NCBI RefSeq assembly: GCF_003121485.1
Contig: NZ_QAVX01000002.1
Span: 214,454 to 278,453, forward strand
Source: Dyella sp. C11
GTDB lineage: Bacteria; Pseudomonadota; Gammaproteobacteria; Xanthomonadales; Rhodanobacteraceae
DNA: 64,000 bases
Reading direction: 5' to 3'
Shown here: positions 10,333 through 50,549 of the stretch, piece after piece
Numbering within the stretch: the stretch's first letter is position 1
How the letters are laid out: each line of letters begins with the position of its first letter
Made by a program: the position numbers and the translations under genes
The notes under the pieces: model-generated
Told to the model about the DNA's origin: nothing
Database searches by the model: none
Seen by the model: only the letters and a program-made list of their open reading frames with translations

Positions 10333-10366
10333 CCAACCTGGCGCATGTAGCGTGCAAGGGGATCCG

Positions 10367-12265
10367 ATGGTCGCAGGGGCCAACTCTCGTACGGTGCAAT
10401 GGTGGCGTCGCACGTCGCTGATGCAGCGGCTTGCGTTGGTGACGCTTGCACCGACGCTCATTACGGCCACGCTGCTGGTGGCCATGCTGGCCCCGCAACA
10501 GTTGATGACACTGCGCGGCATGGCGCAGAACACCGCCGATGCCATCGCCACGCAGGCCGCCTCCGTCACCGTCGCGCCCTTGCGTGACATGCAACGCCGC
10601 GAACTGGTGCGCATTGCCGAATCCATTGGTGACCTGCCGCACGTCGCCCGTGTGCAGATTCGTGCCGCCGACGGCGAAATCCTGGCCGACAGCCTCGGCC
10701 GCAGCGGCGCAGACAACGGCGAAAGCCTCACCGTCGTTCGTGACGTGGTGGACAGCGAACGTCCAGGCCAGCCCGTGCTGGGTTCGGTGGTGGTGGATGT
10801 AAGTCTTCGCGATGCGATTGCCATGCAGCAGGCAAGCCTGCGCCACGCACTGCTCGCACTGGCGATCAGTCTTTGCGTCGCCGCCGTCATTGCGTGGCAG
10901 GCCGCACGATGGATCAGTGCGCCTCTGCGTCGCCTTGTCGACGCCGTGCACCAGCTGGGTCGTGGCGATCGGCACGTCGAGGTGGAAGTCACCGACCAGA
11001 CCGAAATCGGCGAACTCCAGCGCGGCTTCAACAGCGCCGCCATGGCGTTGTTCGACGTGCAGCGCGGCATGGAACGCGAGATCGAACACGCCACCGTGGA
11101 ACTGGCGCGCAAGAACGCGGCACTTGAAGCAGCCAGTGTCGCCAAGGCGCGCTTCCTCGCCGCCGCATCGCACGACCTGCGCCAGCCGCTTTATGCGCTC
11201 ACGCTGTTTTCTTCCGCGCTGGCGGAGGACGAACGCGATCCCGTGCGGCTTGATCGCATTGCGCACATCCAGGAATGCGTCGAAGCGCTGGACCATCTCT
11301 TCAGCGAACTGCTCGATCTTTCGCGCCTGGAAACGGGCGCCATGCAGATCGAGATCGCCGAATTCCCGCTTGACCAGGTATTCCAGGAAGTGAGTCGCAA
11401 CTTCCGCATGATCGCGGAGCAGCACGGCTTGCGCCTGATCATGCGCACCACCGACCTGTGGGTACGCAGCGATCGCACCATGTTGTCGCGCATCCTCAAC
11501 AACCTGGTGAGCAACGCCTTGCGTTACACCGGCCGCGGCGGCGTGCTGGTGGTCGCGAGGCACCGGGAAGATGGCACCGTGCGCGTGGATGTGTGGGATA
11601 CCGGCAGCGGCATTGCACCCGAACACCAGATGCGTGTGTTCGACGAGTTCTACCGTGTGGAATGCCACAGCAACGAGCATGACGTGGGGCGCCGGCGTGG
11701 CCTGGGTCTTGGCCTTGCGACCGTGCAGCGCCTGGCCGAGTTGCTCGACACGCAGGTGTTGCTGAAGTCGAAGCCCGGCCGCGGCAGCGTCTTCAGATTC
11801 CACCTGCCTGAAGTTCCCGCGCAGCACATTCCCGTGCCGAGTGGCGAAGTATCATCACCCGACGTATCGGGCATGCGCGTACTGGTGATCGACGACGAGC
11901 CGGCCATTCTTTCCGGCATTCGCTACCTGCTGAAGAGCTGGGGTTGCGATGTGGCCGTTGCCGAAGATCGCGTGCAGGCGTTGCAGGCGGCCGAGGAATG
12001 GAATGTGCCGCCGGACATCGTCATCTCCGACCTGCGCCTGCGCGACGGCGAAAGCGGCCTCGATGTACTGGCCGCGCTGGACGCGCACTATCAGATCGAC
12101 GGCAACCCGCCCTTCTCCCGCCTGTTGATCACCGGCGAAACACGCAGCGACCGCCTGCGCGAAATCATGGCCGCGCGCATACCCGTGCTCTACAAGCCGG
12201 TGTCTCCGGAACAGTTGCGGGAAGCGCTGATGGAGGCGTGGAGCACCACGCGCACCCTGGCCTGA
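10367..12265 (+). CDS. Hybrid sensor histidine kinase with C-terminal receiver domain
   Basis: This 632-residue inner-membrane kinase has transmembrane helices at about 20-42 and 164-185, flanking a periplasmic sensor of about 120 residues with no recognised ligand fold. A HAMP linker follows (about 186-238). The H-box SHDLRQPLYAL has phospho-accepting His269. The HATPase carries NNLVSNALRY, DTGSGI and GLGLGLAT. A receiver domain follows with Asp509/Asp510, phospho-acceptor Asp555 and Lys610. ATG 10367 is preferred because AAGGGG lies just upstream; an in-frame GTG at 10352 is the alternative. No output domain is attached, so the receiver may feed an outside partner such as the LuxR regulator at 14.6 kb (inference). 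Confidence 0.93.
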   Translation: MVAGANSRTVQWWRRTSLMQRLALVTLAPTLITATLLVAMLAPQQLMTLRGMAQNTADAIATQAASVTVAPLRDMQRRELVRIAESIGDLPHVARVQIRAADGEILADSLGRSGADNGESLTVVRDVVDSERPGQPVLGSVVVDVSLRDAIAMQQASLRHALLALAISLCVAAVIAWQAARWISAPLRRLVDAVHQLGRGDRHVEVEVTDQTEIGELQRGFNSAAMALFDVQRGMEREIEHATVELARKNAALEAASVAKARFLAAASHDLRQPLYALTLFSSALAEDERDPVRLDRIAHIQECVEALDHLFSELLDLSRLETGAMQIEIAEFPLDQVFQEVSRNFRMIAEQHGLRLIMRTTDLWVRSDRTMLSRILNNLVSNALRYTGRGGVLVVARHREDGTVRVDVWDTGSGIAPEHQMRVFDEFYRVECHSNEHDVGRRRGLGLGLATVQRLAELLDTQVLLKSKPGRGSVFRFHLPEVPAQHIPVPSGEVSSPDVSGMRVLVIDDEPAILSGIRYLLKSWGCDVAVAEDRVQALQAAEEWNVPPDIVISDLRLRDGESGLDVLAALDAHYQIDGNPPFSRLLITGETRSDRLREIMAARIPVLYKPVSPEQLREALMEAWSTTRTLA

Positions 12266-12268
12266 GGG

Positions 12269-14035
12269 CTAGCTCTTCGGCGCTACACGTCGGGCAAGCA
12301 CACGGTCGGCCGGAAGGAAGCGACCGAACAGGTCATCCACGAAATCGCCGCTGGGCGCTTCATTGCGCGAGCCGCCCGTTACATAGAGTCCCTGCCAGTG
12401 CAAGCGGCGCGCACCACCCGATTCATTCGCCTGCAGGCGATCGAGGAACGTCCGCAAGCCACGGCGCACGCCATGCAGTGATTGTGCGAAGGCAAACGCC
12501 TCGCGACGACGACGCGGATCGCGCTCCGTCGCCAGCACGGCCTGTGCAGTGGAAAGCAATCGCGCCATCACGCCGTCGGCCTGTGCTTCCAGGTTGGCAT
12601 CGAGCACGCCATCGGCTGCCACGGCGGCATGGCGCCAGCCAAGCACGCGGCGAAATACCGAGGCAGGCAACGCCGAGCGGAACGTGGCATGGCCCGGCAG
12701 CGCTTCCAGCCCGGTCACGACCACGTATACCGGCAACTGAAGTTCCAGGCGGCGCGTGGCTTCATCGGCAAGACGATGCAGGCGATCCGCATGCGTTGCC
12801 ACCACGGCATCCGGTTCGCGCAGGCTTTGGGCGGCGATGCAGATCACCATGCCGTCCAGGGGCAGCTTGCGGCGTTCCGTAGCCAGCATGGCCAGCGCCT
12901 TGGACCACGGCGCGTCGCCATCGCCGATGGTGGCGTGCGGATGCGACAGGCGCGGACCCGGTTCAATCGCCACCACCGAACGAAAAACCCACCAGTGCCA
13001 CGGCCGTGTGTCGTTCGCGCGCGACAACTCGCGTGCATGCGGTGCCGAGGCCGCCGCCTGCAGCAGCGAGCGCACGTCGGCCGCACTGTCACCCAGGAAC
13101 AGCAACCAGGGATGACGCGACAACTGCCGCCAGGGGCCACGACGACGGAAGGGATGCAGCACGGCACCGCGCAACCGGCGTGCGGCGTCCTTCACTGCGG
13201 CCGACAAGCTGCCAATGCCATAGCCGGCCTCGGTGCTGTCGGCCACGCGCGTATGCGCACGCATCATCACCAGCGATTGCCACGCGAGCACGCCTGTCCA
13301 GCCGAGCACAGCCAGCACGGCCACCGCGATGCCACCGGTAAACCACGCCTGCTGGGAAATGCCCTGACTGAAAACAGGCGCGACAAACGCCACGAACACC
13401 AGCAGCACAACCAGCGTGGCCACCAGCTGCGCCAGCCGCCTCCCCATCCATGTTCCCGGCAGGCGCAGCACGGGCGAACCGGGAACCATGTAGGGCTGCG
13501 GGGTTATCGATTCGCGCTGCAACGACTGCAGCACCGTCGTGGCGCCCGTGCTGGCCGGACAGTACAGGGCCTTGATGCGGCCCAGTTCGCCGCCGTCGCC
13601 CTTCTCGTAGTAGTACTGGCCGGTGAAACCCAGCAGCAGCGCCATGCTGAACACTTCGCGCACTTCTTCGTCGCTGTTGCCAAGACGGCCCAGCTGGTCG
13701 AAGAACTCGGTCGCCGCGTTACCCGTACGGAACAGCGTTTGCTGGAGCGGGCTCACCTGCCCTTGCCAGCCACCACGGCGGGACACCATTTCGTCGAACC
13801 ACGCCGCCACGGCGAACGCGGCCAGCTCCACCTCAGCCAGTGACTTGCCACGCGAAAACGCCACGCCACGGCACTGTTCCACCAGCGCCAACGCGCGCGC
13901 GTGCACGGACGGCCATTCGTCGTCGCGAAGATCCTGGCTCGCGGCCTGCTCGTCGACCAGCAAGCCATAGGCAAACAGAGGTGCAAAACATTCCAGCAGC
14001 CGCATGGCACGTATAGCCGTCAGAGCCTGTTGCAT
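12269..14035 (-). CDS. TssL (DotU)-TssM (IcmF N-terminal) chimera, orphan type VI secretion-like protein
   Basis: This protein of about 588 residues joins two type VI modules. Residues about 10-165 match the cytoplasmic DotU/TssL domain (LLECFAPLFAYGLL, AAWFDEMVSRRGGW, TEFFDQLGRL, LLLGFTGQYYY). Two membrane segments follow (about 200-222 and 231-257). The rest resembles the TssM/IcmF NTPase domain (HPWLLFLGDS, DGMVICIAAQSL, LPVYVVVTGLEALPG near 434-448). The Walker A site is lost: the equivalent stretch reads LFLGDSAADVRS, without GKT/S. The large periplasmic TssM domain is absent. No other type VI gene is in the window. ATG 14035 (GGAGC upstream) is preferred over GTG 14062. It converges on the hybrid kinase with a three-base gap. 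Confidence 0.72.
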   Translation of the reverse strand: MQQALTAIRAMRLLECFAPLFAYGLLVDEQAASQDLRDDEWPSVHARALALVEQCRGVAFSRGKSLAEVELAAFAVAAWFDEMVSRRGGWQGQVSPLQQTLFRTGNAATEFFDQLGRLGNSDEEVREVFSMALLLGFTGQYYYEKGDGGELGRIKALYCPASTGATTVLQSLQRESITPQPYMVPGSPVLRLPGTWMGRRLAQLVATLVVLLVFVAFVAPVFSQGISQQAWFTGGIAVAVLAVLGWTGVLAWQSLVMMRAHTRVADSTEAGYGIGSLSAAVKDAARRLRGAVLHPFRRRGPWRQLSRHPWLLFLGDSAADVRSLLQAAASAPHARELSRANDTRPWHWWVFRSVVAIEPGPRLSHPHATIGDGDAPWSKALAMLATERRKLPLDGMVICIAAQSLREPDAVVATHADRLHRLADEATRRLELQLPVYVVVTGLEALPGHATFRSALPASVFRRVLGWRHAAVAADGVLDANLEAQADGVMARLLSTAQAVLATERDPRRRREAFAFAQSLHGVRRGLRTFLDRLQANESGGARRLHWQGLYVTGGSRNEAPSGDFVDDLFGRFLPADRVLARRVAPKS

Positions 14036-14590
14036 GTCGCTCCAATGCCCCTGGCGGAGCACCTGGGTGCACGGGCCGGGGATGAGCGGCGGAGTCTACG
14101 ACGATACACGCCGTCGTGCCGACCACGGAATGGCCAGCCTGAGACATAACGCGTGAAACCGGCGATCGGCGCCCAGCCCGAGGAAAGAGCCATCCATGGC
14201 CAACCACTCGTCGATGCGGGCATCATGTCCCGCACACCGACAGCTCCAAACGGTCCAGGGTAAGCATGACATCGCCTGCTGCATGGTCCGGCAGGCCGGT
14301 GACGCTTTGCGTGGGTCTCATCCAGGTACAAGGCTCTCGGTGTTCGGTAAATCGGACGTGCCGATGGTCTGCACGATCCGTGTTGTTCCGCACTCACCCA
14401 AGCGTGGTACCCATGAGCGACTCCCCCGGTCGTGAGCGAATTGTGTACGGCCAGCCATCCGGGCAGCCATATCCCGTTGAGGCTATGTCATTCGTAGGCA
14501 CCCCAAGGTTGCCGCGCGCACGGGGTGGGGCTATGTTGCGCAGGCGGATGCGCGGCGATGGGAGTGTCGTGTGGCGCCATGGGGAATAAC
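14036..14590. other. Intergenic region between the TssL-TssM chimera and the response regulator
   Basis: These 555 bases separate two divergent genes and must hold both promoters. Short open frames here (for example 14196-14435) lack ribosome-binding sites and show no family resemblance. I see no repeat, RNA gene or strong promoter consensus. Confidence 0.5.
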
Positions 14591-15274
14591 ATGCGCATAT
14601 TGATCGCAGACGACCATCGGCTGATCGTCGAAGGAGTCAAGCTCAAGCTAGCCGAGCTTGGGCCGGACATGGACTTCGTCATCGCCATGGACATGGCCGA
14701 GCTACGCGAGGCAATCCACGCACCGGAGGCCCCGTCGCTGGCGCTTGCGCTTATCGACCTGGCCATGCCTGGCGTGCAGGGCAGCGAGCATCTCGCGGAA
14801 GTCATCGAACACCTGCCTCATGTGCCCGTGATGGTGCTCTCCGGCTCCGAAGACGCCACGCTGATGAAAAGCCTGCTCGCCATGGGCATCCAAGGCTTTA
14901 TTCCCAAGGCGTATTCGCCCGACGTCATGCTGTCGGCTGTGCGACTGGTGCTCTCCGGCGGCATTTACGTGCCACCGCTGCTGTTGCAGGAACGCGTGGA
15001 CGGGGCCGTACCCACGCCTCCGCCCGCCACCGCCATGCAGACACCACAGAGCGCCGCCGATTCACTGGAGGAGCGGCTGCGCAAACTGCTCACCGAACGC
15101 CAGATCGACGTGCTGCGGCTGCTCTCGCAAGGCAAGCCCAACAAACTCATCGCCCGCGATCTGGGCATCAGCGAGGGCACCGTGAAGATTCACCTGGCTG
15201 CCATTTTCCGCGCGCTCAACGTACGCAATCGCGTGGAAGCCGTGGTGGCATCGCGCCGCATAAGCGGCCTCTGA
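14591..15274 (+). CDS. LuxR/NarL-type response regulator
   Basis: This 227-residue two-domain regulator has a receiver domain with the acidic pair in MRILIADDH, phospho-acceptor Asp56 in LIDLAMPG and Lys106 in FIPKAYS. A proline-rich linker (VPTPPPATAM) leads to a LuxR helix-turn-helix (LTERQIDVLRLLSQG, then ARDLGISEGTVKIH). ATG 14591 follows GGGGAA; an in-frame ATG four codons upstream is possible. The PhnD-like gene begins 35 bases after the stop, so they likely form an operon. Kinases at 10.4 and 17.4 kb are candidate partners. Confidence 0.92.
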   Translation: MRILIADDHRLIVEGVKLKLAELGPDMDFVIAMDMAELREAIHAPEAPSLALALIDLAMPGVQGSEHLAEVIEHLPHVPVMVLSGSEDATLMKSLLAMGIQGFIPKAYSPDVMLSAVRLVLSGGIYVPPLLLQERVDGAVPTPPPATAMQTPQSAADSLEERLRKLLTERQIDVLRLLSQGKPNKLIARDLGISEGTVKIHLAAIFRALNVRNRVEAVVASRRISGL

Positions 15275-15309: not shown

Positions 15310-16431
15310 ATGCCCCTCGCTCCGGACGCAACTGCCGCAGCACTCGCCGTCGGACGCCACGTTCGGTCCGATGGACACCTCGACGCCGCGCTCCCTGGGC
15401 CATTACGGAAACATCGATCGGCAAGCCGTCGCTGGACGGCCTTGCTGTGGCTCGCGCTGTTCTTCGCATTCCCATCCGCGTGGGCCGCGCCGCCGCAACA
15501 AAGCGGCCACATCAACACGCTGACGTTCGGCATCCTGCCCATCGGCGGGCCATCGGAATCGCTGGCCGCCTGGCGGCCCATGCTCGATGACCTGAGCCAC
15601 ACGTTGCACATCCCCATTCGCAGCCTTTCCGTCAGCACCTATGAAGGCCTCGGGCAGGCGATGGCGGAGGAACGCGTCGATTTCGCCTTTGTGTCGGGGC
15701 GATTGGCACTGGATGCCGTGATCCATGACCGCATGCAGGTCATTGCGCAGCTCACCCGCAGCAACGGATCGCGTGGTTATTACTCGGTGTTGCTGGTGGC
15801 GAAGGACTCGCCGATACACAGCCTCGACGACATGTATCGCCAACCCGGCAAGCTGCGCTATGCGCGTGGTGAGGTGTTATCGGTATCGGGCTACCTGGTG
15901 CCGGAAACCCAGGTGTTCGCCAATCGCAAACTGGACTCGGACACCTTCTTCGCCAGTGTGTCCGTGGACAACCACCAGAACAACGCGCTGGCCGTGGCCA
16001 ACAACGAGGTGGATGTCGCGACCAACAACACGGCGGACATGGAACGCTTCGCCGAACGCTTTCCCGACCAGTACGCGCGCCTGCGCGTGCTTTGGACGTC
16101 CAGCCTGATTCCGCATGCGGTGGTGGTGATTCGTACGGATCTGCCGCCCGACCTGCGCCAGCGTGTCGCCGCTGCGCTCACCAGTTACGCCAAGGGCAAG
16201 AACGCGGCGCCTGAGTTGGCCAAGCTGCATCTCATCCACGACATCAGCGGTTTTTCGCCGGCCGGCAACGAGACCCTGGTGCCGTTTGCCGATATCGAAT
16301 TCAACCTTGATCGCCGTCGCGCCTACAGTGCGCAATGGGTAAGCGACGCGGCAATGCAGGCGCGCCTGAAGAAGATCGACACCGAACATGAGGCGCTGGT
16401 GCGCCAGTTGATGGCGCCCAGCAGCCCGTGA
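15310..16431 (+). CDS. PhnD-like periplasmic substrate-binding protein
   Basis: This protein of 373 residues has an unusually long, arginine-rich N terminus before a hydrophobic signal segment (about 43-60, ending SAWAAPP). The mature part is a PhnD/phosphate-phosphonate-type periplasmic binding fold: TLTFGILPIGGP, then RPMLDDLSHTL, YEGLGQAMAEERVDFAFVSG, the hinge region SGYLVP, and NHQNNALAVANNEVDVATNN. No ABC permease or ATPase is nearby. Together with a response regulator and two kinases this suggests a sensory receptor rather than a transporter subunit (inference). The start could be later, but no better start codon is visible. Confidence 0.8.
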   Translation: MPLAPDATAAALAVGRHVRSDGHLDAALPGPLRKHRSASRRWTALLWLALFFAFPSAWAAPPQQSGHINTLTFGILPIGGPSESLAAWRPMLDDLSHTLHIPIRSLSVSTYEGLGQAMAEERVDFAFVSGRLALDAVIHDRMQVIAQLTRSNGSRGYYSVLLVAKDSPIHSLDDMYRQPGKLRYARGEVLSVSGYLVPETQVFANRKLDSDTFFASVSVDNHQNNALAVANNEVDVATNNTADMERFAERFPDQYARLRVLWTSSLIPHAVVVIRTDLPPDLRQRVAAALTSYAKGKNAAPELAKLHLIHDISGFSPAGNETLVPFADIEFNLDRRRAYSAQWVSDAAMQARLKKIDTEHEALVRQLMAPSSP

Positions 16432-17349: not shown

Positions 17350-18798
17350 ATGGAGTCGCGCGCGCGCCTGCTGCCTCGCCTGTTCATCGATGTGGTCCTG
17401 CCCAGCACCATCGCCGCACTGGCCCTGGTGCTGGCGCTGTGCGTGCAGCAGACCCACAACCTGAGCGAGCGCCAGGATGCCGCGGCTGGACAGCGGCTGG
17501 CACGACTGGCCGGTGAGCTGGATGCCAGCGACGGCATATCGCCGCAGGCCGCACTGGACCGCACCCTGCAGGAAGGCAAGGTAGACCAGGTTCTGCGCGT
17601 GGAATGGCACGGCTCGGACGGACGACTGTTGAGCAGCGGTGCATCGCCGAGTCTGGACGTCTCGACGTATCGCAGCGAGCTGCGGCCACACGGCAGCATT
17701 TCGTCGTGGGTGAGCATGGATGTCGACACGCATCCGTTGCGCAAAGCCCAGCTGATGGTGTGGCTGCTCGGCGCACTGTGCGGCGCGGGCATCCTGGTGC
17801 TGGCGTGGTTGGCGCGCGTATCCATCCGCCATCGCGTGCTCGAACCGCTGTCGCAGGCGCGCTACGCCGTGCACGAGCTGGTGAATGCGCGGCATCCGCA
17901 ACTCGATGACACGCCGGTCAGCGCGGAATTCGTCGAATTGCGCCGAACCCTGCAACGCGTTTCCGAATTGCAGGAAGAACAGCGCCGCGACTGGAGTGCC
18001 ATGCAGCACGACAACGCCGTCGAGGCACTCGATCGACTGCGCCAGAGCCAGGCCGCCACGCGCAGCAAATCCCAGTTCATCGCCCTGGTAAGCCATCACT
18101 TCCGCCAGCCGCTGCAGGCGCTGGAATTGTTTGCCGCCGGCCTGGACCAGAACGCCAGCGGCGAGCAGCAGTCGCTGTTCCAGCAAATGCGTCACAGCAT
18201 TGCCTCGATGACACGCCTGCTTGATGCGCTGCTGGAGATCTCGCGGCTCGATGCCGGCGTGATTGCCGTAAAGCCCGTCGGTTTTACCGCGGCCGAACTC
18301 TTCATGCGCGATCGCACATCGCTCAATCACGAAGCGGCCCAGCATCACGTCGAGCTGACCTGGCGCGGCAGTCACCACCAATTGCACGGTGACGCCGACG
18401 TCGCCGCCAGCCTGCTCTATCAACTGGCGAGCAACGCCATCGCCAACGCACCGGATGGGCGCGTGCTGATTGCCGCGCGCCGTCGCGGGCAGGCCGTGCG
18501 CATCGAAGTGCGCGACAACGGCCCGGGCATTGCCGTGATCCACCAGCAACGCATCTTCGAAGAATTCGTCCAGCTGCAGGCCGGCGAAAGCGAGCGCAGG
18601 GGCGGCTATGGATTGGGTCTGGCCATCGCGGAACGTCTAGCACGCCTGCTGGGTACGCGCATCGGCCTGCGTTCGGAACCAGGGCGTGGCAGCACGTTCT
18701 GGTTCGACCTGCCGCGCATGCCCGTCATGGAACGGCATTCGACCAACAGCAACCCTTCGCAGAAGCAGGCCCCGGCCGCGTGGCGCCAGGCCAGCTGA
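17350..18798 (+). CDS. Sensor histidine kinase (HDLRQP-type H-box)
   Basis: This 482-residue inner-membrane kinase has helices at about 12-31 and 135-156, bracketing a roughly 100-residue periplasmic domain (34-132). A short coiled coil (about 195-240) leads to the H-box SHHFRQPLQALEL, with His249 aligned to the phospho-histidine of SHDLRQP kinases. The catalytic domain shows YQLASNAIANAP, DNGPGIA and GYGLGLAI. There is no receiver or output domain. GGGAGG lies eight bases before the ATG. The unusual SHHFRQP variant resembles the H-box of the hybrid kinase at 10.4 kb, so the two probably share ancestry. Confidence 0.92.
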   Translation: MESRARLLPRLFIDVVLPSTIAALALVLALCVQQTHNLSERQDAAAGQRLARLAGELDASDGISPQAALDRTLQEGKVDQVLRVEWHGSDGRLLSSGASPSLDVSTYRSELRPHGSISSWVSMDVDTHPLRKAQLMVWLLGALCGAGILVLAWLARVSIRHRVLEPLSQARYAVHELVNARHPQLDDTPVSAEFVELRRTLQRVSELQEEQRRDWSAMQHDNAVEALDRLRQSQAATRSKSQFIALVSHHFRQPLQALELFAAGLDQNASGEQQSLFQQMRHSIASMTRLLDALLEISRLDAGVIAVKPVGFTAAELFMRDRTSLNHEAAQHHVELTWRGSHHQLHGDADVAASLLYQLASNAIANAPDGRVLIAARRRGQAVRIEVRDNGPGIAVIHQQRIFEEFVQLQAGESERRGGYGLGLAIAERLARLLGTRIGLRSEPGRGSTFWFDLPRMPVMERHSTNSNPSQKQAPAAWRQAS

Positions 18799-47883: not shown

Positions 47884-50466
47884 TTACTGCGTGCGGAAGG
47901 CCAAATGCCCCTGCTCCGCCTCCACCACAATGGTGGCGCCCGCCTGGAACTTCCCTTCCAGTATCTCCCTCGCCAACGGATTCTCCAGTTGCTGCTGGAT
48001 CGCCCGCTTCAACGGTCGCGCGCCGTACACCGGGTCGAAGCCCACGTTGCCCAGCAAATCGAGCGCCTTGTCACTGATCTCCATGCGCAGCTGCCGTTCG
48101 GCGAGGCGTTTCTCCAGGTAAGTCAGCTGGATCAAGGCGATCTTGCGGATCTGCTTCTTCTCCAGCGGGCGGAACACCACCAGCTCATCGAGTCGGTTGA
48201 TGAACTCGGGGCGGAAGTGAGCCTGCACCACGCCCAGCACCGCCGCCTTCATCTGCACGTAGTCGGCTTCGCTGTCGCCCGAGTGCTCCTGGATCATCTG
48301 CGAACCCAGGTTGGAGGTCATCACGATGACGGTGTTGCGGAAATCCACCGTGCGACCCTGGCCATCGGTAAGGCGACCGTCGTCCAGTACCTGAAGCAGG
48401 ATGTTGAACACATCCGGATGCGCCTTCTCCACTTCGTCCAGCAGGATCACGCTGTACGGACGGCGACGCACCGCTTCGGTGAGGTAACCGCCTTCTTCGT
48501 ATCCCACGTAGCCCGGAGGCGCGCCGATGAGCCGGCTCACGGAGTGCTTCTCCATGAACTCGCTCATGTCGATGCGCACCATCGCATCCTGCGTGTCGAA
48601 CATGAATTCGGCGAGCGCCTTGCACAGCTCGGTCTTGCCCACGCCGGTGGGGCCAAGGAACAGGAACGAGCCATACGGACGATTGGGATCGGAAAGGCCG
48701 GCGCGGGCGCGACGAATGGCGTCGGACACGGCACGCACGGCCTCGTCCTGGCCGACCACGCGCTTGTGCAGGGCATCTTCCATGTGCAGCAGCTTTTCGC
48801 GCTCGCCTTCCAGCATCTTGTTGACGGGAATACCCGTCCAGCGCGAGACGACCTCGGCGATTTCCTCCTCGGTCACGCGGTCCTGCACCAGCTTGAAATC
48901 CTGTTTTTCGGCGGCCTGCGCGGCTTCGAGCTGCTTTTCCAGTTCCGGCAGCTTGCCGTACTGGATCTCGCTCATCTTGGCGTAGTCCTGGCGACGCTGG
49001 GCGGCTTCCAGCTCAAGGCGAGCCGCCTCGATCTGCTCCTTCACCTTGGTCGCCCCTTGCAACGCGGCCTTTTCGGACTTCCAGATCTCGTTGAGGTCGG
49101 AGAACTCGCGCTCCAGCTTCTCAATGTCCGATTCCAGGTCGGCGAGGCGCTTCTTGGATGCGTCGTCGGTTTCCTTCTTCAGCATCTCGCGCTGGATCTT
49201 CAGCTGGATCAGGCGACGCTCCAGGCGGTCGAGTTCTTCCGGCTTGGAATCGATTTCCATGCGGATGCGCGACGCCGCCTCGTCCATCAGGTCGATGGCC
49301 TTGTCAGGCAGCTGGCGATCCGGAATGTAGCGATTGGACAACGTGGCCGCGGCGACGATGGCCGGGTCGGTGATTTCCACGCCGTGGTGCACCGCGTAGC
49401 GCTCCTTCAGTCCACGCAGGATCGCGATGGTGTCTTCCACGCTCGGCTCGCCGACATAGACCTTCTGGAAGCGTCGCTCCAGCGCGGCATCCTTCTCGAT
49501 GTACTTGCGGTATTCGTCCAGCGTGGTGGCGCCGATGCAATGCAGTTCGCCGCGCGCCAGCGCAGGCTTGAGCATGTTGCCGGCGTCCATGGCGCCATCG
49601 GCCTTGCCGGCGCCCACCATGGTGTGCAGTTCGTCGATGAACAGGATGATCTGGCCTTCGTTCTTGGCCAGGTCGTTGAGGACCGCCTTCAGGCGCTCTT
49701 CGAATTCACCACGGAACTTGGCGCCTGCAATCAGCGCGCCCATGTCGAGCGCGAGCACGCGACGGTCACGCAGGCCTTCGGGCACTTCGCCCTTCACGAT
49801 GCGCTGCGCCAGGCCTTCGACAATGGCCGTCTTGCCCACGCCGGGTTCACCGATCAGCACCGGGTTGTTCTTGGTGCGACGCTGCAGCACCTGGATGGTG
49901 CGGCGGATTTCCTCGTCGCGGCCGATCACCGGATCGAGCTTGCCCGACTCGGCCCGGGCCGTAAGATCGATGCAATATTTCTCCAGCGCCTGCCGCTGGT
50001 CTTCAGCGTTCTCGCTTTGCACCTTTTCGCCGCCGCGCAGCTTCTCGATCGCGGCTTCCACGTTGGCCTTGGTGGCACCGGCGGCCTTCAGCGCCGCTCC
50101 CAGTTCGCCCCGCTCTTCCACTGCGGCCAGCACGAACAGTTCGCTGGCAATGAACTGGTCGCCGCGCTGCTGCGCCAGCTTGTCGGTGAGGTTGAGCAGG
50201 CGCGTCAGTTCGTTGCCGACGTGCACGTTACCTTCCTGCCCGCTGACGCGCGGCAGGCGCTCGACCATTTCATTCACGCGCTGGCGCAGCGTGGGCACGT
50301 TGACCTGTGCCTGCGTCAGCAACGGCGCCGTCGAGCCGCCCTGCAGGTCGAGCAGCGCGGCCATGACGTGCACGGGTTCGAGCATGTTGTTGTCGCGACC
50401 AACGGCCAGCGACTGTGCGTCGGCCAATGCCTGCTGAAAACGCGACGTGAGTTTGTCCATTCGCAT
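47884..50466 (-). CDS. clpB: Disaggregase chaperone ClpB
   Basis: ClpB here is 860 residues, a two-ring AAA+ chaperone that works with DnaK to solubilise aggregates. The N-terminal Clp_N repeats begin [18 protein letters not shown]. Walker A1 GEPGVGKT has Lys212 and Walker A2 GPTGVGKT has Lys611. The ClpB-specific coiled-coil middle domain (about 410-530) separates the rings. ATG 50466 has GAGGGG eight bases upstream; the second ATG two codons later is possible. A sigma-32-like promoter lies 55 bases upstream. Confidence 0.97.
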
Positions 50467-50520
50467 TGGGTTGTCCCCTCGATCAATAGGATCTGGCGGC
50501 CCCGCCGCCACTGGCACCAG

Positions 50521-50549
50521 AGATGCGGATCGCACGCGCGTGATTCAAC
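50521..50549 (-). promoter_or_regulatory. Putative heat-shock (sigma-32) promoter of clpB
   Basis: On the minus strand GTTGAAT, 14 bases, CCGCATCT. The consensus is CTTGAAA-N11-16-CCCCATNT, so the -10 matches at all but one fixed position and the -35 at five of seven. Placement before a classical heat-shock gene supports it. Confidence 0.7.

What the first reader, a model, noticed from the sequence alone, without database searches (positions are those of the whole stretch)
12269..14035. Orphan TssL-TssM chimera with a missing P-loop, outside any type VI cluster
A single protein joins a DotU/TssL-like domain to an IcmF/TssM NTPase-like domain. The Walker A site is replaced by GDSAADVRS and the periplasmic TssM region is absent. 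No tssB, tssC, hcp, vgrG or clpV is present in 64 kb. It sits among sensor kinases, so it may have been recruited as a membrane scaffold unrelated to secretion, or be a modifier of a remote type VI system. This is the best candidate here for an undescribed system.
Basis: partly seen in the sequence, partly recalled or inferred. Interest (0 to 1): 0.65.

Follow-up and report, generated by a model that had tools for sequence, protein, structure and literature searches.

The report
Repurposed remnant of a secretion machine
In Dyella soil bacteria, a gene cluster for a protein-injecting machine (type VI secretion) has apparently shrunk in place to one fused gene that keeps only the machine's inner-membrane cytoplasmic face, and every species examined has kept it intact even though most have lost the machine, so it probably has a new job.

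Summary
In detail: window 12269-14035 (minus strand) encodes a 588-aa TssL-TssM fusion without a P-loop. The genome is Dyella-like. The fusion occurs in 20 of 20 genus genomes, always at the same site (hybrid histidine kinase - fusion - LuxR-type regulator - PhnD-like protein), under strong purifying selection (dN/dS 0.07-0.18). Fourteen of the 20 have no type VI system by TssF. In related genera the same site is either empty or holds a type VI cluster with separate tssL and tssM on the same strand. The fusion is therefore most simply the in-place remnant of a lost type VI cluster. It keeps every cytoplasmic part (TssL domain; TssM TM1-TM2 and GTPase-like domain) and has lost every periplasmic part, ending just before TssM's third transmembrane segment. 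The missing P-loop is inherited: the parent TssM lacks it, and DxxG and TKxD, too. A convergent fusion of the same architecture (21% identical) lies inside a type VI cluster of another proteobacterium. Best reading: a domesticated, secretion-independent inner-membrane pseudo-GTPase platform, possibly tied to the flanking two-component system. The origin is well supported; partner and function are inferred.

The parts
12269..14035 (-). tssL-tssM fusion gene (LM), 588 aa as annotated; conserved start Met11 at about 14005
13466..13999 (-). TssL/DotU cytoplasmic domain (residues 13-190); TssL's own transmembrane segment and periplasmic DUF4384 domain are absent
   Evidence: structure match to TssL/DotU crystal structures Z 15.8-17.3
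13286..13426 (-). two transmembrane segments (residues 204-222, 232-250), homologous to TssM TM1-TM2
12293..13138 (-). GTPase-like cytoplasmic domain of TssM (residues 300-581), ending just before the position of TssM TM3
13067..13093 (-). GDSAADVRS at the P-loop position; degenerate also in the parental TssM
14093..14106 (.). 14-bp block AGTCTACGACGATA upstream of the fusion, invariant in 8 of 8 closest species, single occurrence in the genome (up to 1 mismatch); possible promoter or operator element
10352..12265 (+). hybrid sensor kinase (HAMP-HisKA-HATPase-REC), constant left neighbour in 17 of 17 genus loci read
14591..15274 (+). LuxR-type response regulator (conserved start MRILIADD), constant right neighbour
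15310..16431 (+). PhnD-like periplasmic binding protein
17350..18798 (+). second sensor kinase of the same locus

Best explanation
The gene is what remains, in place, of a type VI secretion cluster that once lay between the hybrid kinase and the LuxR-type regulator. The adjacent tssL and tssM genes are fused, tssM is cut just before TM3, and everything else of the cluster is gone at this site (inferred from comparison; the site, strand and gene order are shown). The product keeps exactly the cytoplasmic face of the TssL-TssM inner-membrane complex: the TssL cytoplasmic domain and the TssM GTPase-like domain, both tethered by the TssM TM1-TM2 hairpin. It has no periplasmic or outer-membrane-reaching part, so it cannot be a trans-envelope conduit. 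The GTPase-like domain lacks all canonical nucleotide motifs, so it should act as a protein-binding surface, not a switch. It has been kept under purifying selection in the whole genus, mostly without any type VI machine, so it has a secretion-independent job. Most likely it is an inner-membrane docking platform; coupling to the flanking two-component system is the leading guess for its partner (inference, about 0.3).
For: 20 of 20 genus genomes have it, and the flanking gene order is the same in all 17 other genus loci read. TssF is absent in 14 of 20 and VipB in 12 of the 18 searched. Two related genera carry type VI clusters with separate tssL and tssM, same strand, in the same slot, and the site is empty in 13 sister-genus genomes. 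No other type VI gene of the cluster is detectable at the Dyella loci even at E 0.5. The junction and C-terminus remove exactly the periplasmic modules. Trees of the two halves both place the fusion next to the same type VI subtype. dN/dS is 0.07-0.18 over both halves, including lineages without a type VI system; neighbouring genes give 0.05-0.15. A GTPase-type fold (Z about 12) without P-loop, DxxG or TKxD. Published: the TssM cytoplasmic loop recruits TssG/TssF to the membrane in E. coli (PMC4604203), so this face is a docking surface.
Against: The nearest type VI TssM is only about 40% identical and the fusion has a long stem branch, so the exact donor cluster is not identified. The fusion may have arisen before the rest of the cluster was lost: a convergent fusion exists inside a type VI cluster elsewhere. 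The flanking two-component genes persist without the fusion in sister genera, so they do not need it. No expression, localisation or interaction data were available.
Confidence: 0.72

Rival explanations
1. It is a modifier or accessory part of a type VI system encoded elsewhere in the genome, for example an alternative membrane base or a competitor of TssL/TssM.
For: Six of 20 genus genomes, this one included, have a type VI cluster elsewhere. The retained surfaces correspond to those that bind baseplate proteins in E. coli (PMC4604203).
Against: Fourteen of 20 carriers have no TssF, and selection is equally strong among them. The resident systems belong to other TssM types, 22-27% identical.
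Confidence: 0.08
2. It is a decaying relic of a lost cluster, still open by chance and without function.
For: It evolves faster than its neighbours (55-85% identity against 85-95% for the hybrid kinase), and the rest of the cluster is gone.
Against: Intact in 20 species down to 55% identity, with no internal stop except one upstream of the conserved start and one at the C-terminal end. dN/dS is 0.07-0.18 in both halves.
Confidence: 0.04
3. The remnant was retained specifically as a component of the flanking signalling system: a membrane scaffold for the hybrid kinase, LuxR-type regulator, PhnD-like protein and second kinase, controlled by that regulator. (A more specific form of the best explanation.)
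For: Unbroken linkage in 17 of 17 genus loci read. The regulator and PhnD are embedded in this type VI subtype in Rhodanobacter, Dyella tabacisoli and Lysobacter, and the regulator in a Pseudomonadales MAG, so the association is old. Divergent intergenic region with conserved blocks.
Against: The signalling genes persist without the fusion in 13 sister-genus genomes. Linkage could simply be inherited position.
Confidence: 0.3
4. The fusion was imported ready-made from a type VI system that naturally uses a TssL-TssM(N) fusion, and its position next to the kinase is secondary.
For: Such a fusion exists inside a type VI cluster of another proteobacterial family.
Against: Only 21% identical to that one. 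Same slot and strand as the separate tssL-tssM of the sister clusters, to which both halves are closest.
Confidence: 0.1

Closest known systems
TssL and TssM of the divergent type VI clusters of Rhodanobacter (G067, G136, G195, L076) and Dyella tabacisoli and relatives (L075; G002, G028)
   Same: Both halves align over their whole length (TssL part about 47%, TssM part about 40% identity); same chromosomal slot, same strand, same degenerate nucleotide motifs
   Different: There they are two adjacent genes (448 and about 1170 aa) with TssL's own transmembrane segment and DUF4384 domain and TssM's TM3 and periplasmic part, inside a cluster with Hcp, TssA, B, C, F, G, K and a ClpV-like ATPase
TssL-TssM(N) fusion of genome G614 (P0002, L102)
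   Same: Same architecture: DotU domain, two transmembrane segments, IcmF N-domain without P-loop, about 635 aa, no periplasmic part
   Different: 21% identical; lies inside a type VI cluster (TssK, TssA, fused TssB-TssC, Hcp, TssE, TssF, TssG, VgrG); not found in 73 other genomes of its family
Lysobacter gummosus divergent type VI cluster with a LuxR homologue (PMC6653060)
   Same: Published as divergent, with a LuxR gene; possibly the same subtype, since Lysobacter sp. ISL-50 here has the same tssK-tssL-tssM-tssA order next to the LuxR-type regulator
   Different: Not compared directly; complete system; no fusion mentioned in the passages read
Citrobacter rodentium TssM1 length variants (PMC4256274)
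   Same: A C-terminally truncated TssM is made and functional
   Different: Made by transcriptional slippage, works together with full-length TssM in secretion, and its truncation (residues 1-807) lies far downstream of the one seen here

Membership tests
TssL/DotU family | DotU cytoplasmic domain | tested here: met
   PF09850 E 2.5e-18 over its cut-off; fold match to TssL/DotU structures Z 15.8-17.3
TssL/DotU family | single C-terminal transmembrane anchor of its own | tested here: not met
   Replaced by the TssM TM1-TM2 hairpin
TssM/IcmF family | IcmF N-terminal cytoplasmic domain | tested here: met
   PF14331 E 4.4e-30 over its cut-off
TssM/IcmF family | TM3 and large periplasmic region | tested here: not met
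   Protein ends before TM3; TIGR03348 equivalog cut-off not reached
P-loop GTPase/NTPase | P-loop, DxxG and TKxD motifs | tested here: not met
   GDSAADVRS, IEP and TGLE at the aligned positions
P-loop GTPase/NTPase | Ras-like GTPase fold | tested here: met
   Model of the C-terminal half, pLDDT 76.7, Z about 12 to G proteins and Rag/Arf GTPases; a shared fold does not show function
Functional type VI secretion system | sheath, tube and baseplate genes beside the membrane complex | tested here: not met
   None in the window; 14 of 20 carriers lack TssF genome-wide
Functional type VI secretion system | secretion activity | not testable with these tools
   needs an experiment
Known anti-phage defence protein | match to a PADLOC model | tested here: not met
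   no PADLOC-DB match for the fusion

The most novel reading that the evidence does not exclude
The cytoplasmic face of the type VI membrane complex has been domesticated into a genus-wide, secretion-independent inner-membrane pseudo-GTPase platform, showing that the TssL-TssM docking module can have a cellular function without any contractile machine.
Probability: 0.6. Interest if true: 0.78.

Novelty: new variant of a known kind. Interest (0 to 1): 0.62.

Why it matters
Machines are rarely caught losing all but one part while that part is kept. Here the ancestral cluster, the empty site and the retained remnant can all be read at one chromosomal address. The remnant isolates the cytoplasmic part of the type VI membrane complex in bacteria that have nothing for it to dock, so a knock-out and pull-down in one Dyella strain without a type VI system would reveal what TssL-TssM can do alone. 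A convergent fusion of the same shape inside a type VI cluster suggests that the periplasmic half is dispensable in some systems.

Tried and rejected
(1) Search for leftover type VI genes at the Dyella loci with E up to 0.5: only the TssL and TssM parts. (2) Remnant of TssM TM3 after the stop codon: only chance-level matches that run into the antisense of the kinase gene. (3) Defence system: no PADLOC match for the fusion. (4) ClpV in the window: it is housekeeping ClpB. (5) A cluster ORF called 'u18' proved to be the antisense frame of the response regulator and was dropped. (6) The 14-bp upstream block is confined to the closest 8 species and is not found elsewhere in the genome, so it could not be tied to the regulator; the sigma-70 scan found nothing. 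(7) Short IcmF-N frames in 398 proteobacterial genomes: of the four examined by Pfam, two were split TssM proteins (L103, L104), one an OmpA-type TssM (L107) and one a true fusion (G614). (8) Fusion elsewhere in the class: none of 369 genomes matched over the full length at E 1e-20 except this one. (10) Papers: none found describing a TssL-TssM fusion. (11) A window search read a wrong sequence record and was repeated correctly.

Full report
WHAT IS THERE. The minus strand of 12269-14035 encodes a 588-aa protein with a DotU domain (residues 13-215) and an IcmF-related N-domain (375-570), both over Pfam's cut-offs. Two transmembrane segments lie between them (204-222, 232-250). The conserved start is probably Met11, since one relative has a stop just before it. 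Fourteen type VI proteins searched against the window match only this gene and ClpB.

PHYLETIC PATTERN. The window lies in a Dyella-type genome: the named close matches are Dyella species. The fusion is present in 20 of 20 genomes of the GTDB genus, at 55-100% identity over its whole length. In all 17 other genus loci read, the order DedA - hybrid kinase - fusion (opposite strand) - LuxR-type regulator - PhnD-like protein - DUF3617 - second kinase is unchanged. TssF is found in 6 of the 20 genomes and absent in 14; VipB is absent in 12 of the 18 searched. This genome is one of the six: its separate type VI cluster on contig C3 has its own TssM.

ORIGIN. The nearest relatives outside the genus are TssL and TssM, as two adjacent genes, in two other genera of the family: Dyella tabacisoli and relatives, and some Rhodanobacter. 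The orthologous hybrid kinase lies beside those clusters. Mapping shows hybrid kinase - [Hcp, TssC, TssB, TssA, TssM, TssL, TssK, TraB-like; minus strand] - regulator - PhnD - [MltA-like, TssF, TssG, ClpV-like; plus strand]. In 13 genomes of sister genera the kinase and regulator are direct neighbours with nothing between. The Dyella fusion thus sits in the same slot and on the same strand as tssM-tssL of the relatives. No other gene of the cluster is detectable there, even at E 0.5. Trees of the DotU half and of the IcmF half both place the Dyella proteins beside this type VI subtype; the DotU tree gives one Dyella clade (97/93), while the IcmF tree is weakly resolved at its base. The stem branch is long, so faster evolution after domestication, or an older donor, is likely.

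ANATOMY. Alignment with the parent proteins shows what was kept. The TssL cytoplasmic domain runs to the conserved ITPQPY; TssL's own transmembrane segment and periplasmic DUF4384 domain are gone. Then come TssM TM1, TM2 and the complete cytoplasmic domain, and the protein stops a few residues after ...RFLPADRxLA, just before the position of TM3. What remains is precisely the cytoplasmic face of the TssL-TssM complex on a two-helix anchor. Structure models agree: the N-half matches TssL/DotU crystal structures (Z 15.8-17.3), and the C-half is a Ras-like GTPase fold (model pLDDT 76.7, Z about 12 to G proteins). The P-loop, DxxG and TKxD motifs are degenerate in all fusions, and already in the TssM of the sister type VI clusters (GDADANVHG, IET, TGLE), whereas other TssM proteins of the family have GxPGSGKS/T and TKCD. 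The missing Walker A is therefore an inherited property of the subtype, not an event in the chimera. Published work reports that the Walker A of the Agrobacterium TssM is required for Hcp secretion (title in the reference list of PMC4256274) and that the cytoplasmic loop of E. coli TssM recruits TssG and TssF (PMC4604203).

SELECTION. Pairwise dN/dS (Nei-Gojobori) is 0.07-0.18, similar over the DotU, membrane and GTPase-like parts, and 0.07-0.10 within a group of four species without a type VI system. Neighbouring genes give about 0.05-0.15 (one regulator comparison, L040, misaligned and was set aside). The gene is functional.

CONVERGENCE. A survey of IcmF N-domains in 398 proteobacterial genomes found one other protein of the same architecture, 635 aa, in genome G614. 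It lies in a cluster with TssK, TssA, a TssB-TssC fusion, Hcp, TssE, TssF, TssG and VgrG and is 21% identical to the Dyella fusion. So a cytoplasm-only fusion can also be the membrane base inside a type VI cluster, and in Dyella the fusion may predate the loss of the rest.

MECHANISM. Shown: architecture, site, gene order, conservation, loss of nucleotide motifs, occurrence without type VI systems. Inferred: it is an inner-membrane platform that binds a cytoplasmic partner without nucleotide switching. Candidate partner, inferred only: the flanking two-component system, because its regulator is linked to this type VI subtype also in Lysobacter and in a Pseudomonadales MAG, and because a review notes a LuxR gene in the divergent Lysobacter gummosus cluster (PMC6653060). 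Against this, sister genera keep the two-component genes without the fusion.

VERDICT. A real, genus-wide, selected remnant of a type VI cluster with a probable new function: a new variant of a known kind, not an undescribed multi-gene system. No paper found in the library describes it.

Noticed in passing
L102:3748-5655; L108:15781-19655; L109:1-9043 (genome G614): A type VI cluster in which TssL and the TssM N-part are one 635-aa protein and TssB and TssC are one 781-aa protein; no periplasmic TssM part was found among the genes scanned.
   Followed up: partly
L052, L054-L059 (genomes G067, G002, G028, G136, G195); L076, L077, L078: A type VI subtype whose TssM lacks all nucleotide motifs and whose cluster surrounds a LuxR-type regulator and a PhnD-like binding protein, a candidate for a dedicated sensory control module of this subtype.
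   Followed up: partly
window 14093-14106: Block AGTCTACGACGATA upstream of the fusion, invariant in the 8 closest species and otherwise absent from the genome; absent in more distant Dyella.
   Followed up: partly
window about 14440-14590: Conserved block (GGCCATATCAC...CTAGGCC in most relatives) upstream of the LuxR-type regulator, kept across the family in genomes with and without a type VI cluster; possibly the regulator's own promoter or binding site.
   Followed up: no
L089, L090 (genomes G039, G093): In these two genomes of the Rhodanobacter-clade genus (g18) the regulator and PhnD gene are missing beside the hybrid kinase, another kind of loss at the same site.
   Followed up: no
window 47884-50535: Housekeeping ClpB, easily mistaken for ClpV by a homology search.
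   Followed up: yes
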